Virus record (IMG/VR): IMGVR_UViG_3300023090_000181
Coordinates: 1 to 40,323 of that record
DNA length: 40,323 bases
Reading direction: 5' to 3' (one strand)
From: a virus
Position numbers and translations under genes: made by a program
The notes under the pieces: generated by a model
The model's input: only the letters and a program-made list of their open reading frames with translations
Databases searched by the model: none
Told to the model about the DNA's origin: nothing
In this document: positions 17,658 through 34,976 of the stretch, piece after piece
How positions within the stretch are numbered: the first letter of the stretch is position 1
Layout of the letters: each line of letters begins with the position of its first letter

Positions 17658-18145
17658 AACAATTCCCCTCCCATCGCACGGGCCAGCCGGCGGCGAATTT
17701 CTTCCTTCATGTCGGCCAGGGCTGGGGTGAGGAATGGCCGGGCGTCTTCATGCTTCGTTCCCGGTGGGTGCTTGGCCTGGTACTTCATCTCAGCAAGGCT
17801 GGTCATAGGCTTTTGGGGACCGCCCCGCGCACCAGCGCCTACCTTGCGGTCAAAGCCTTTTTCCCAGTAGCGGCCATAGGGTACATTCGTTCCCACGCTG
17901 CTGCTGAAGCTGTTGCCGTCCTCGCTGGGCAGGTCGCTAATGTTCCCCGAAAGCAATCCCGTCCGCCCAACGCCCAGATGCCCAGGGCGAGGCCCGTTGA
18001 GGTATTTGCTGACTACGAGGTTTCGCAGGGAAATACCCAGCGCGTTCACCGTCATGCGCACGCGCTCCCGTCGTGCGGCGCTGATCCTCTCAAGCTTGGC
18101 TTGCACAAGCTCCGAACCGACGACTTGGCCTGTGATCGTAATCAA
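17654..18145 (-). CDS. HK97 gp10-like neck protein
   Basis: 163 aa. It fits the HK97-gp10-like family: a helical N terminus (LVQAKLERISAARRERVR), the GRTGLLSGNIS segment, then YGRYWEKGF and ARPFLTPALADMKEEIRRRL at the C terminus. Proteins of this family build the neck between head and tail. It overlaps the connector gene upstream by ATGA and the small basic gene downstream by ATGA. Confidence 0.85.
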   Translation of the reverse strand: MITITGQVVGSELVQAKLERISAARRERVRMTVNALGISLRNLVVSKYLNGPRPGHLGVGRTGLLSGNISDLPSEDGNSFSSSVGTNVPYGRYWEKGFDRKVGAGARGGPQKPMTSLAEMKYQAKHPPGTKHEDARPFLTPALADMKEEIRRRLARAMGGELL

Positions 18146-18708
18146 CCGACGACCTTCTTCCAGTTGTTGAGTGAATCCTTGGCCCAGTTCGGAATAGACA
18201 ACTGCGAGAAAGCCACAACCTCACCGCCTATGCTCTTGCTGATTTGCCCTATCCGTGAGCTTTCGTTGTAGCCCCAGGCGACGATGCGGCAAGCGACATG
18301 CTCAAGATCGAATGGGACGGTTGCGAACCCGGCGGTGTACTTCAGAACGACGTTCATAATGTCGCGGCGGAAGATGGGAATATCCCAGATAGAAGTACCC
18401 GCTGGCCGCACGACAAGGCCGATTGTGCGCCGCCCATCGCTAACCGCGCTGGCGGTCACGTCAACGCCATCCACCAGCACCTGAGTGATGGCCGTAACCG
18501 GATAGTTGGCGGTCATGATCTGCCGGCCACCCGTGCCGTTCAACGTCTCGGTGTAGTCCGTCAAAAGGATGTCCCGGTTGAGGTATGACTTAATCCAGGC
18601 GCTGACGGCGGTGATGAACGGCGACAGTTTGGCGTCTGCCGTGTCGGCGGTGATTCCGAGATACGTCTTCACGCTTGTGAGAGTCGTCAGATCGCCTGGG
18701 TCAGCCAT
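18142..18708 (-). CDS. Head-tail connector (gp6-like)
   Basis: 188 aa. N-terminal TLTSVKTYLGITADTADAKL is the classic start of gp6-like connector proteins, followed by the PFITAVSAWIKSYLNRDI helix, a beta region (RQIMTANYPVTAITQVLVDG) and C-terminal helices. It binds the portal after packaging and provides the tail-docking ring. ATG follows directly after the stop of the 33-aa gene. Confidence 0.87.
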   Translation of the reverse strand: MADPGDLTTLTSVKTYLGITADTADAKLSPFITAVSAWIKSYLNRDILLTDYTETLNGTGGRQIMTANYPVTAITQVLVDGVDVTASAVSDGRRTIGLVVRPAGTSIWDIPIFRRDIMNVVLKYTAGFATVPFDLEHVACRIVAWGYNESSRIGQISKSIGGEVVAFSQLSIPNWAKDSLNNWKKVVG

Positions 18709-18813: not shown

Positions 18814-19047
18814 TTACTCCGTTACAGGAGGTTCGGTGCCGGGGTCGGTGGCCTTTGCGGCCTTCGTTTTGCGGCCGGTGGCCTTCACGGGGGCAGCCTC
18901 AGGTTCGGTGCCGGGGTCGGTGGTGAAACCGTGCGAGAGCAGATCGAGGACGGCTTCCTCGGGAACATCGAAAGCGCCGGTTTCGTCAGGCTTGTAACTC
19001 TCGCCGTTCCAAGCGCATCCGGTGGCGTTATCGTGATAGAGCTTCAT
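18814..19047 (-). CDS. Small head-region protein with duplicated TDPGTEP
   Basis: 77 aa. The N-terminal half (CAWNGESYKPDETGAFDVPE, AVLDLLSHGF) resembles small proteins encoded just after capsid genes. The C-terminal half holds TDPGTEP twice; the DNA repeat is about 22 bp (18829-18850 and 18903-18924), flanking a Lys/Ala-rich stretch. Possibly a head-joining or decoration protein; no firm family. Confidence 0.55.
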   Translation of the reverse strand: MKLYHDNATGCAWNGESYKPDETGAFDVPEEAVLDLLSHGFTTDPGTEPEAAPVKATGRKTKAAKATDPGTEPPVTE

Positions 19048-19063
19048 ATTCTTCCCTCTCTTT

Positions 19064-19137
19064 TGGTTCCGGGTGCCGGATTTGAACCGGCGTCTCGGGA
19101 GTATGAGCCCCGCGGATTACCACTTTCCCAACCCGGT
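19064..19137 (-). tRNA. tRNA with anticodon CAU, initiator (fMet)-like
   Basis: A full cloverleaf fits on the minus strand. Acceptor ACCGGGT (19137-19131) pairs with ACCCGGA except at 1-72, an A-A mismatch; then A73 and an encoded CCA (19066-19064). The D-arm has G18-G19 and G10-C25, G11-C24, A12-U23; the anticodon stem is CGGGG/TCCCG with loop CTCATAC (19107-19101); the T-arm is GCCGG-TTCAAAT-CCGGC. Unpaired 1-72, purine 11 with pyrimidine 24, G29-G31 and loop TTCAAAT are initiator traits; U39 and the 13-22 mismatch depart from it. Confidence 0.85.
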
Positions 19138-19196
19138 TCCTGTGAAATGGGGCATAGCGGTTACCGCGCCATGCCCCACTTGTTACGCCCTTGCGC

Positions 19197-20672
19197 TTAG
19201 GCGTTGGCGACGTTGTAGAGCTTGAGCAGCGAGAACGGCGCGTAGTGCTGGAGAACTTCGTCCGCGTACACGCCGTACTCGAACTTGCGGCTCTTGAAAG
19301 GCCACTGGAGGCTGTAGTACTCCTTGCGCGTCTTCACCTGGAACACGTTGCCGACGCCATTCAGCGGGTACGGAATTTCGCGGCAGTAGCCGAGAATCGT
19401 ACCGGCGGGCATATTCGGGTGAACCCTGACGCGAATCAGAGTGTTGGTGATCGGGTTGAGGTACGAACCGATGGTGGCGCCAGCAGCCAGCCCGGAGACT
19501 CCGCCCTTGTCGTCCATAACGAACCGGAAGAGGGGCGCGCCGCCGTTGCCGATGCAGAGCTTGTTGATGGTGCGGATTCCGGCGCTCGAAACCAGCAGAT
19601 CGGAAGGCCCGATGCGGCTGGTGTCGAACATATTCTGCAGGAGGTTATTGATTTCCTGCACGCCGCCCGCGCCGTCTGCGGTCAGCCCAGTACCGGTGCC
19701 GGCTGTGCCGGTGGCCAAGGCAACGCTGATTGCGTTGTTGGCAACCTTGGCGAAGGAGAGCATACCGTCGTAGTTGTAGACGGCATCCTTCGAGTAGTCG
19801 GCTGCGGTGAGGGCGGAGGCAAGCTGGCGGGTTCCGTTCAGAGGAGCGGTAACCGCCAAGCTGTTGATTGAGGTAATGAACTCCAGATGCTCAGCGCCAG
19901 CCGCGCCGATGAACCACGCGTAGGCAACCGCGCCCTCAACTGGAGCCACAGAGCAGAATAGCGTCTGCCCGAGGGTGACGGCCTGGGTAGCCTCTGCCGA
20001 CTTCTGAGCCGCGCCGCCGTTGATGGTGTCGCTGCTACCGTCCGTGTTGGTCTTGGTGATCTGGCCAATAACGCCATTCGCCAAGCTAGACCGGCTGTTG
20101 CCCTGGTGGGTCAGCGCAACGCAGATAACGCCGTAGGTCAAGGCCGGCAGGGTTGCGCCGCTTCCGGAGGCAGAGAGCGACGGGGTAGGAGTGGTGCCGA
20201 GCGCCAGGCTGGCGTTTCCGCCGAGCAGCATCCCCTCTTCCTGAATCATCAGGGAGCGGAGCAAGCCGAGGGTTGCGCGGGCCTTCGGGTCGTCGAAGTC
20301 CACGGCGGCATAGTCAGCCTCGAAGCTCACGTAATCTTCCAGGCCAAGGCCGACATACGCAGCGGTGTAGCTGGCCGTCGAAGTGGCTACCGTAGCGCCG
20401 CGATTGCTTTCAGAGACGCCCGGATGCGTGTTGCCGGTGTTGATTCCGGTGATCGCCTTCCAGCGAGTCGCCGTATCGCCGCCGCCGCCTACGCGGGGAA
20501 TGTCGTTGCGCAGCATGGTCATTGCCGCGACGAACGGGTAGAGGGCCAGCGCGGGAGCTTGCAGGTCGTAACCTACGAGGCCGGTGGCCTGGGTGAACGC
20601 CTTCGAAACCACATCGGTTCCGTTTTCACTGAGGGCCTTTTTTACGAGGTCCAGCGTCTCTTGCATACTCAT
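19197..20672 (-). CDS. Major capsid protein, HK97 fold with inserted domain
   Basis: 491 aa. Early residues form an N-arm and E-loop-like part (YPFVAAMTMLRNDIPR, RWKAITGINTG). A capsid-like spine follows (LLRSLMIQEEGMLLGGN), and the C-terminal part has NLLQNMFDTSRIGPSDLLVS, typical of HK97-fold capsids. Residues about 161-282 look like an inserted Ig/fibronectin-like beta domain (VEGAVAYAWFIG). AGGAGG precedes ATG 20672. The preceding gene supplies protease and scaffold, and the tRNA lies just downstream. Confidence 0.88.
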   Translation of the reverse strand: MSMQETLDLVKKALSENGTDVVSKAFTQATGLVGYDLQAPALALYPFVAAMTMLRNDIPRVGGGGDTATRWKAITGINTGNTHPGVSESNRGATVATSTASYTAAYVGLGLEDYVSFEADYAAVDFDDPKARATLGLLRSLMIQEEGMLLGGNASLALGTTPTPSLSASGSGATLPALTYGVICVALTHQGNSRSSLANGVIGQITKTNTDGSSDTINGGAAQKSAEATQAVTLGQTLFCSVAPVEGAVAYAWFIGAAGAEHLEFITSINSLAVTAPLNGTRQLASALTAADYSKDAVYNYDGMLSFAKVANNAISVALATGTAGTGTGLTADGAGGVQEINNLLQNMFDTSRIGPSDLLVSSAGIRTINKLCIGNGGAPLFRFVMDDKGGVSGLAAGATIGSYLNPITNTLIRVRVHPNMPAGTILGYCREIPYPLNGVGNVFQVKTRKEYYSLQWPFKSRKFEYGVYADEVLQHYAPFSLLKLYNVANA

Positions 20673-33625: not shown

Positions 33626-34041
33626 GCAACCTCCGCAACGGCTACAGGTGGATTTGCCTTCCGTGGGCCGCGCTTCCGAGCAGTCATGACCTTGACGCGC
33701 TCGAATAGATCAGCGTTGCTCGTTCCATAGGGAAGGATGAGCGATGCGGCCTCGACGTCCAAGGGAGATTTCTCCTTGAGCCGCGCAAGGACGAGGATGG
33801 GGACGCGGAGAGCCGTACCGTGAGCCTGTTTTGCGACAGCCTCAGTCAGATCATGGTCTCCCGAGTCAGCCAGGATAATCAGATCGGTTCCTTCTAGGTC
33901 GGCCCTCAGCGCGAGGATGAGGCTGCTTGCCGTTTTGCATCTCTCAGTCGTAACGTGGAGAGACGTATTCAAAGCGAAGGCAATCAGCTTAGCGTCCTCT
34001 TCCCGCTGGCTCCAGAGAAGTATCTTTCTGCGGGGCCTCAT
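33622..34041 (-). CDS. Receiver-like (CheY fold) protein, degenerate
   Basis: 139 aa. Alternating strands and helices resemble a response-regulator receiver: KILLWSQREEDAKLIAFAL, then DLIILADSGDHDL and VPILVLARLKEKSP. The phospho-acceptor Asp is not at the clean position, so it may be a pseudo-receiver. A basic, Pro-rich tail follows. ATG 34041 overlaps the upstream stop. The role in a phage is unclear. Confidence 0.5.
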   Translation of the reverse strand: MRPRRKILLWSQREEDAKLIAFALNTSLHVTTERCKTASSLILALRADLEGTDLIILADSGDHDLTEAVAKQAHGTALRVPILVLARLKEKSPLDVEAASLILPYGTSNADLFERVKVMTARKRGPRKANPPVAVAEVA

Positions 34042-34976
34042 GCTTGCACCGCCGGGAACTGCTTCCATTCGCGCCCGTCAAGCAGCGAACCGGCATCATC
34101 TCGGCCTATGCGAACCATCCGCTGTCCAGGCCGGTCGTTGTAACAAAATGGCCGGATTACCTTGCCATCGGCTTTAACCAGGCAGGTCGGAGTGCTGGGG
34201 TGAAGATGTTCAACTTCGTGATTTTCGTTCCATGGCGCCCATTCTCCCCACTGCTTGAAGAAGAACGGGACGCGGGCAGCTACACACTGGTTCCGCAGAT
34301 CACGCGCCCAGTTCGGATGCATCGGGCGCGCTTCACAGCCGCTCTCGCCGCCACAGATCACCCATCCGAGTCGCGCAAGACGCTTTTTCGAGTTCCGATC
34401 ATCGAACCGAAGAGCATCGAATCCGTCCGGGTGCCCATCCCAACCTTCCGGCCACGGGATGCAACTAAGATCCACGGGCCCTACCATCGGCTCAACACTG
34501 ACGCCATGAACAACGGCGGTGATGCTCAACAGAATCGGAATGCGCAGATCGGCCATGGGCTGATTCTCGGTAGTGACCATGAGCCAGACGTTGGGGTATC
34601 CGGTTCCCCAATCAGCGGGCAGACACGCAGCGATGCGCTCGGGGCGCTTGGTGCAAAGCTGGTAAGTGAGATTCGGCGTCTCCCGGATGATGGCCCAAGC
34701 CTCGGCGCGCCATGGGTCGGCTTCCTCGATGAAAAAGTCAGACCACGAATCGACGAAAACGCGGTTGATGTGCCCGTACTTCTCGCGGTTCTTTGCCCAC
34801 TTCAGAGGGGCGTTGAACGTCGCCTTGGCAGAGCGGATCACCACGTCGGGGTTCTGTCCGTACCGCTTTTTGTCGGCGAACATATAACAGTTCTTGCAGC
34901 CTGCCGAGACCTTGTGGCAGCCCTGCCAGCAATTCCACGTCGCGTCGGTCCAGGCAATTCCTGTGCTAGCGCCCAT
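34038..34976 (-). CDS. DUF5131 (phage Gp37/Gp68) family protein
   Basis: 312 aa. The N terminus has TWNCWQGCHKVSAGCKNCYM with Cys16, 20, 27 and 30, the signature of this family, whose Cys set suggests an iron-sulphur or radical-SAM-like site. Later conserved parts include NRVFVDSWSDFF, QLCTKRPERI, NVWLMVTTENQ and WVICGGESG. In many genomes it neighbours a three-Cys-motif partner gene (TcmP); none is present here. Substrate unknown. Confidence 0.88.
   Translation of the reverse strand: MGASTGIAWTDATWNCWQGCHKVSAGCKNCYMFADKKRYGQNPDVVIRSAKATFNAPLKWAKNREKYGHINRVFVDSWSDFFIEEADPWRAEAWAIIRETPNLTYQLCTKRPERIAACLPADWGTGYPNVWLMVTTENQPMADLRIPILLSITAVVHGVSVEPMVGPVDLSCIPWPEGWDGHPDGFDALRFDDRNSKKRLARLGWVICGGESGCEARPMHPNWARDLRNQCVAARVPFFFKQWGEWAPWNENHEVEHLHPSTPTCLVKADGKVIRPFCYNDRPGQRMVRIGRDDAGSLLDGREWKQFPAVQA

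What the first reader, a model, noticed from the sequence alone, without database searches (positions are those of the whole stretch)
19064..19137. Initiator-type tRNA-Met(CAU) in the capsid operon
The cloverleaf has an unpaired 1-72 position (A-A), R11-Y24, a G29-G31 run and the TTCAAAT T-loop, the set that distinguishes bacterial fMet tRNA from elongator Met. The CCA is encoded. Phage tRNAs are usually elongators clustered outside structural operons, so a lone initiator-like tRNA between capsid and connector genes is unusual. It might raise initiation on the many GTG/TTG starts, or be processed from the mRNA and thus adjust capsid versus downstream expression.
Basis: partly seen in the sequence, partly recalled or inferred. 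Interest (0 to 1): 0.75.

Follow-up and report, generated by a model that had tools for sequence, protein, structure and literature searches.

The report
Phage initiator-type tRNA beside capsid gene
A phage carries one extra copy of the tRNA that starts proteins, inserted next to its capsid gene and altered in the loop where a known bacterial toxin cuts the host's copy; similar lone start-type tRNAs turn up in many phages, so it is unusual but not unique.

Summary
The tRNA is real: ARAGORN and Rfam find one 74-nt tRNA-Met(CAU) at 19064-19137, minus strand, co-oriented with the capsid operon, CCA encoded. It is initiator-type: A1·A72 mismatch, G11-C24, G29-G30/C40-C41. An initiator covariance model beats an elongator-CAU model by 9 bits (bona fide host initiators: 28). 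It departs from host initiators at positions 38 and 39 (C38, G31·U39), where enteric VapC toxins cut tRNA-fMet. None of 182 loci with relatives of its capsid protein has this tRNA; in those inspected the site between a post-capsid hairpin and the next gene is empty or holds a small ORF. It looks like a single-gene insertion across a GGAACC repeat. It is not a freak: lone initiator-type tRNAs occur in many unrelated phages, and at least two, with undetectably related capsid proteins, repeat the order capsid gene, hairpin, tRNA, next gene. Variants at loop positions 32 or 38 recur in viral contigs and were absent from the bacterial genomes searched (about 595 for position 38, 120 for T32). Best reading: an extra or replacement initiator tRNA made from the late operon. 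Nuclease evasion and mRNA processing are plausible, untested refinements. The GTG/TTG idea has no support.

The parts
19064..19137 (-). initiator-type tRNA-Met(CAU), 74 nt, CCA encoded, A1·A72, G11-C24, anticodon arm CGGGG-CUCAUAC-UCCCG (C38, G31·U39)
19149..19177 (-). hairpin after the capsid stop codon (GGGGCATGGC...GCTATGCCCC), conserved with covariation in relatives that lack the tRNA
19135..19140 (-). 5' copy of the GGAACC direct repeat (last 3 nt of flank plus first 3 nt of tRNA)
19065..19070 (-). 3' copy of the GGAACC direct repeat (within the tRNA 3' end)
19048..19063 (-). short spacer with Shine-Dalgarno-like AGAGAGGGAAG for the next gene, directly after the tRNA CCA
19197..20672 (-). 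major capsid protein candidate, 491 aa, phrog_13692 (family without assigned function; role inferred from position after the head maturation protease)
18814..19047 (-). 77-aa gene downstream of the tRNA (weak phrog_26071)
18142..18708 (-). head-tail adaptor (phrog_442)

Best explanation
A phage-borne initiator-type tRNA gene was inserted as a single unit into the junction between the capsid gene and the next gene of a temperate tailed phage. Shown: the gene, its initiator-type features, the empty site in relatives, co-orientation with the late operon, and the recurrence of such lone tRNAs in unrelated phages. Inferred: it is transcribed only with the late structural operon, released by host RNase P and 3' processing, charged by MetRS (CAU, A73), formylated because of the open 1-72 position, and used as an additional or replacement initiator when virion proteins are made in bulk.
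For: Single high-scoring tRNA. The initiator model scores 63.5 bits and the elongator-CAU model 54.6 bits on it; held-out Acidobacteriota fMet genes differ by about +28 to +29, and CAU tRNAs judged elongators by -2 to -27. A1·A72 is also the mismatch of some Acidobacteriota fMet genes (L242, L246, L247). 0 of 332 non-CAT tRNAs combine the three features. Most of the ten most similar tRNAs in the collection are phage CAU tRNAs with a GGG stem. All stems intact, CCA encoded. Empty site and GGAACC repeat show acquisition. Same order in unrelated phages L410 and L642.
Against: G31·U39 and C38 break two features of the initiator anticodon arm; the review calls the 3-GC stem highly conserved and the C32·A38 pair peculiar to initiators. 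The 2-71 pair is C-G, not G-C, and 11-24 is G-C, not A-U (formylation aids named). The D-stem has 3 pairs. The score is intermediate, below host initiators. Present in one phage only among the relatives found, so no conservation shows selection. No expression data.
Confidence: 0.6

Rival explanations
1. Nuclease-resistant replacement initiator (a refinement of the best explanation): on infection the host cleaves its initiator tRNA in the anticodon loop, for example by a VapC toxin, and the phage copy, altered at positions 38 and 39, survives and keeps late translation going.
For: Enteric VapC cuts tRNA-fMet between A38 and C39 (PMC4105405); the window has C38 and U39. Position-38 variants of the initiator-type arm: C38 in 59 viral contigs, T38 the great majority of a capped scan, against 0 of 597 bacterial genomes for C38 and 0 of 594 for G38/T38, where A38 is found in 111 of 160. 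Fisher p about 3e-6 using an extrapolated bacterial count. The general hypothesis is published (PMC10264068).
Against: In a viral sample not chosen by position 38, 101 of 109 hits keep A38. T32, not at the cut site, is also common in viruses (97 contigs) and absent from 120 bacteria, so relaxed constraint on the 32-38 pair explains the pattern as well. No host, no VapC and no cleavage data for this phage; the effect of C38/U39 on VapC is unknown.
Confidence: 0.3
2. Cis-acting processing element: RNase P and 3' enzymes cut out the tRNA, leaving capsid mRNA ending in a stabilising hairpin and a separate downstream mRNA with its own ribosome-binding site, so capsid is made in excess of the connector proteins. 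The tRNA itself need not work in translation.
For: Hairpin 11 nt upstream, ribosome-binding site directly after the CCA; no promoter-like and no minus-strand terminator-like site nearby; same arrangement in L410 and L642.
Against: The hairpin exists in relatives without the tRNA. A pure processing element would not need initiator-type features. Two capsid-adjacent cases (L410, L642) among roughly fifty surveyed loci is near what random placement would give.
Confidence: 0.2
3. Neutral or recently acquired cargo at an insertion-prone junction, not used or already decaying.
For: Restricted to one phage among 182 related loci; five relatives carry a small 51-52 aa ORF at the same junction instead; loop and stem departures from canonical initiators.
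Against: All stems, T-loop, A73 and CCA are intact at 58 bits; the initiator-type 1-72 mismatch is kept in 31 of 44 C38 phage tRNAs, which points to retained initiator identity in the class.
Confidence: 0.2
4. An elongator tRNA-Met, or tRNA-Ile2 with lysidine at C34, that only resembles an initiator.
For: C38 with U39 occurs in phage CAU tRNAs with Y11-R24 (L407, L431, L746).
Against: 1-72 mismatch, R11-Y24 and the 9-bit preference for the initiator model.
Confidence: 0.1
5. Attachment site, or tRNA-dependent lysogeny (the phage integrates into the host initiator gene and complements it).
For: The phage has a tyrosine integrase at 1-1008; such systems exist (PMC10865867).
Against: The tRNA is 18 kb from the integrase, in a late operon expected to be silent in a lysogen; no other tRNA fragment above chance in the window.
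Confidence: 0.03

Closest known systems
Bacterial initiator tRNA-fMet
   Same: CAU anticodon, A73, unpaired 1-72, purine 11 with pyrimidine 24, GG/CC at 29-30/40-41, TTCAAAT T-loop; A1·A72 seen in some Acidobacteriota fMet
   Different: C38 instead of A38, G31·U39 instead of G-C, C2-G71, G11-C24, shorter D-arm and variable loop, 74 instead of 77 nt
Phage-encoded initiator-like tRNAs (annotated only as tRNA-Met, e.g. Mycobacterium phage Erdmann, Pseudomonas phage pf16)
   Same: Initiator-type acceptor end and anticodon stem in a phage genome
   Different: Those two sit in tRNA arrays of large phages and keep the CUCAUAA loop; this one is alone in a capsid operon of a 40-kb contig with a CUCAUAC loop
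Phage tRNAs with anticodon-loop changes proposed to evade host tRNases (eLife 2023, PMC10264068)
   Same: Loop change at a known toxin cut site
   Different: That study reports that phages generally avoided encoding the VapC target tRNA-fMet; here an altered initiator-type tRNA is encoded. Resistance untested
Lone initiator-type tRNAs in L410 and L642 (uncultured viruses)
   Same: Order major head gene, hairpin, initiator-type tRNA, next gene
   Different: Capsid proteins not detectably related; L642 has T32 and two hairpins

Membership tests
tRNA (RF00005) | cloverleaf covariance score above cut-off | tested here: met
   58 bits vs 29; ARAGORN
bacterial initiator tRNA | mismatch or weak pair at 1-72 | tested here: met
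   A1·A72
bacterial initiator tRNA | purine 11 - pyrimidine 24 | tested here: met
   G11-C24; canonical is A11-U24
bacterial initiator tRNA | three consecutive G-C pairs 29-41, 30-40, 31-39 | tested here: not met
   two G-C pairs, third is G31·U39
bacterial initiator tRNA | C32·A38 loop | tested here: not met
   C32 and C38; feature described in PMC4611024
bacterial initiator tRNA | overall initiator rather than elongator profile | tested here: inconclusive
   +8.9 bits for the initiator model, against about +28 for host initiators
bacterial initiator tRNA | formylated and used at the start codon | not testable with these tools
   needs biochemistry
nuclease-evading phage tRNA | change at the nuclease cut site relative to the host tRNA | tested here: inconclusive
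   C38 and U39 at the VapC 38/39 site, but the host species and its nucleases are unknown
nuclease-evading phage tRNA | resistance to the nuclease | not testable with these tools
   needs cleavage assay
attP / tRNA-dependent lysogeny | tRNA or fragment next to the integrase | tested here: not met
   tRNA 18 kb away; no other fragment above chance

The most novel reading that the evidence does not exclude
Phages carry a subtype of initiator-type tRNA, altered at the 32-38 loop pair and not seen in the bacterial genomes sampled, that resists host anticodon nucleases aimed at tRNA-fMet and takes over translation initiation during late infection, often as the phage's only tRNA.
Probability: 0.28. 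Interest if true: 0.78.

Novelty: new variant of a known kind. Interest (0 to 1): 0.5.

Why it matters
Why phages carry tRNAs is an old open question. A lone initiator-type tRNA is hard to explain by codon supply, because it is used once per protein and the host already makes it. The altered 38/39 positions point to one experiment, VapC cleavage of host versus phage initiator tRNA, that could decide between nuclease evasion and relaxed constraint. The recurrence of the order capsid gene, hairpin, initiator-type tRNA, next gene in unrelated phages also makes a cis-processing role testable.

Tried and rejected
Folding energy as evidence for the tRNA: not significant (z = -0.78). Search for the exact anticodon arm GGGGCTCATACTCCC in viral contigs: ten hits, one of them a tRNA (L036). 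Search for the capsid protein in genome contigs with one sequence: none; the alignment gave 80 loci, none with a capsid-adjacent tRNA. Direct donor of the tRNA in 199 Acidobacteriota genomes: none, mostly fMet genes at 77-82% over the 3' half. Best whole-phage similarity is to Geothrix prophages, a weak host hint only. The idea that position 38 alone is the phage-specific change was weakened by the T32 control and by A38 being the majority in viruses. My early count of 100/100 A38 in canonical initiators was a selection effect of the search pattern and is not used. Placement beside structural genes is not claimed as enriched: 9 of 19 C38 loci surveyed, but structural genes fill much of such genomes. 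Attachment-site role rejected.

Full report
OBSERVATION. ARAGORN finds one tRNA in the window, tRNA-Met(CAU), 19064-19137, minus strand, and Rfam RF00005 matches it at 58 bits against a gathering score of 29. The minus-strand sequence is ACCGGGTTGGGAAAGTGGTAATCCGCGGGGCTCATACTCCCGAGACGCCGGTTCAAATCCGGCACCCGGAACCA. The tRNA is co-oriented with the late operon, between a capsid candidate (phrog_13692, after portal and head maturation protease) and a 77-aa gene followed by a head-tail adaptor. The next gene's ribosome-binding site begins right after the CCA.

CLASS. Published determinants of a bacterial initiator are the 1-72 mismatch and three G-C pairs in the anticodon stem, with help from G2-C71, C3-G70 and A11-U24 (PMC7949028); pairs 29-41 and 30-40 contact the 16S rRNA, and C32·A38 is peculiar to initiators (PMC4611024). 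The window tRNA has the mismatch, the two rRNA-contacting pairs, C3-G70 and R11-Y24, but lacks the third G-C pair, A38 and G2-C71. Of 332 non-CAT tRNAs collected here, 5 have the mismatch, 21 R11-Y24, 78 the GG/CC pairs, none all three. I built two covariance models from viral-contig CAU tRNAs, one initiator-type (R1) and one elongator-type (R2). The window scores 63.5 on R1 and 54.6 on R2. Held-out Acidobacteriota initiators prefer R1 by about 28-29 bits; CAU tRNAs judged elongators prefer R2 by 2-27 bits, except the ambiguous PfAn1 tRNA (+3.8 for R1). Other C38 phage tRNAs lie at +10 to +14, near the window. The call is initiator-type, not canonical. A1·A72 is not odd in itself: some Acidobacteriota fMet genes have it.

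ORIGIN. Capsid relatives were fetched from viral contigs and bacterial genomes. ARAGORN finds no tRNA in the first 30 loci and only two, distant from the capsid gene, in all 182. In closely related loci the capsid stop is followed by a hairpin, a short spacer and the next start codon; the hairpin shows covariation. In the window the tRNA sits between the hairpin and the ribosome-binding site, bounded by a GGAACC repeat of which the 3' copy is part of the tRNA end. Removing one repeat plus the intervening stretch (70 nt) gives a spacer that aligns with L003 better than the full one (score 69 vs 63), including GAACCAA...AGAGG. The same junction in L005, L006, L016, L018 and L020 holds a 51-52 aa ORF, so it accepts insertions. 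Best whole-phage similarity to bacterial records is to Geothrix prophages, only a weak host hint.

NOT UNIQUE. A canonical initiator tRNA matches 294 of 50,697 phage records, often annotated as tRNA-Met. In viral contigs the C38 pattern GGGCTCATACYCCN{6,16}GTTCRA occurs in 59 contigs, mostly as true ARAGORN tRNAs with an open 1-72 position (33 of 46 distinct, window included), and in many 25-65 kb records as the only tRNA. Neighbouring genes in 9 of 19 surveyed C38 loci are structural or packaging genes. L410 repeats the window's order exactly: major head protein (phrog_1357), 53 nt with a hairpin, C38 tRNA, ribosome-binding site, next gene. L642 has a major head protein (phrog_11589), hairpins, a T32 initiator-type tRNA, next gene. 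The three capsid proteins show no detectable similarity. I do not claim enrichment beside capsid genes; two such cases in about fifty loci is near what random placement would give.

LOOP VARIANTS. T32 variants occur in 97 viral contigs. In bacterial genomes C38 is found in 0 of 199 Acidobacteriota and 0 of 398 of a second phylum, that of G004, a Methylocapsa; G38/T38 in 0 of 594; T32 in 0 of 120; the A38 control is found in 49 of 60 and 62 of 100. In a viral sample not chosen by position 38, A38 is 101, T38 7, C38 1. So loop variants are a minority in viruses but were not seen in the bacteria sampled (Fisher p about 3e-6 with an extrapolated denominator). Among viral CAU tRNAs with a GGG stem, the mismatch is kept in 31 of 44 (C38), 48 of 91 (T38) and 47 of 72 (T32), against 8 of 61 without that stem.

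MECHANISM. Shown: gene, class features, insertion, co-orientation, recurrence. Inferred: co-transcription with the late operon (no promoter-like site nearby), RNase P and 3' processing, charging, formylation, use as an extra or replacement initiator. Two refinements are open. Enteric VapC cuts tRNA-fMet between A38 and C39 (PMC4105405), the two positions changed here; nuclease evasion by phage tRNAs is a published hypothesis, whose authors report that phages mostly avoid encoding tRNA-fMet (PMC10264068). Against this, T32 variants are also common, so relaxed constraint on the 32-38 pair is as good an account. Second, excision of the tRNA would leave capsid mRNA ending in a hairpin and a separate downstream message. 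A role in GTG/TTG starts has no support: 16 of 22 likely genes start with ATG by mechanical calls, and the anticodon is the host's. An attachment-site role is rejected: the integrase is 18 kb away and no other tRNA fragment is present above chance.

VERDICT. Real, initiator-type, a single-gene insertion, a new variant of a known kind (phage-encoded initiator-type tRNA), with a testable link to initiator-directed anticodon nucleases.

Noticed in passing
window 19149-19177 (-); L003, L005, L007, L008, L011, L016 after the capsid stop: A hairpin directly after the capsid stop codon is conserved with covariation in relatives that lack the tRNA; it has no T-run and may be a 3' stabiliser or processing signal.
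   Followed up: partly
L005, L006, L016, L018, L020 downstream of the capsid gene: A 51-52 aa ORF (MSGSSNDMYGGIQDFAAAKKRAEEI...) occupies the junction where the window has the tRNA, suggesting an insertion-prone site.
   Followed up: partly
L391, L515, L679: Members of phrog_17745 (unknown function) lie just upstream of lone initiator-type tRNAs of three different loop types.
   Followed up: no
L746 (Serratia phage Kashira) 1475-1551: A tRNA-Met in a large tRNA array has anticodon arm CGGGG-TTCATAC-TCCCG, the window's arm with T32, but an elongator-like D-stem and a paired 1-72.
   Followed up: no
L744 (Xanthomonas phage Elanor) 2495-2570; L745 (Bordetella phage PHB04) 2001-2076: Unannotated CAU tRNAs with initiator-like anticodon stems and open 1-72 positions in published phage genomes; in Elanor it follows the terminase large subunit gene.
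   Followed up: no
L258, Acidobacteriota genome contig: Array of at least eleven divergent tRNAs, probably a phage or prophage.
   Followed up: no
window 34038-34976 (-): DUF5131 protein that also matches PADLOC candidate-defence models PDC-M41B and PDC-M30B.
   Followed up: no
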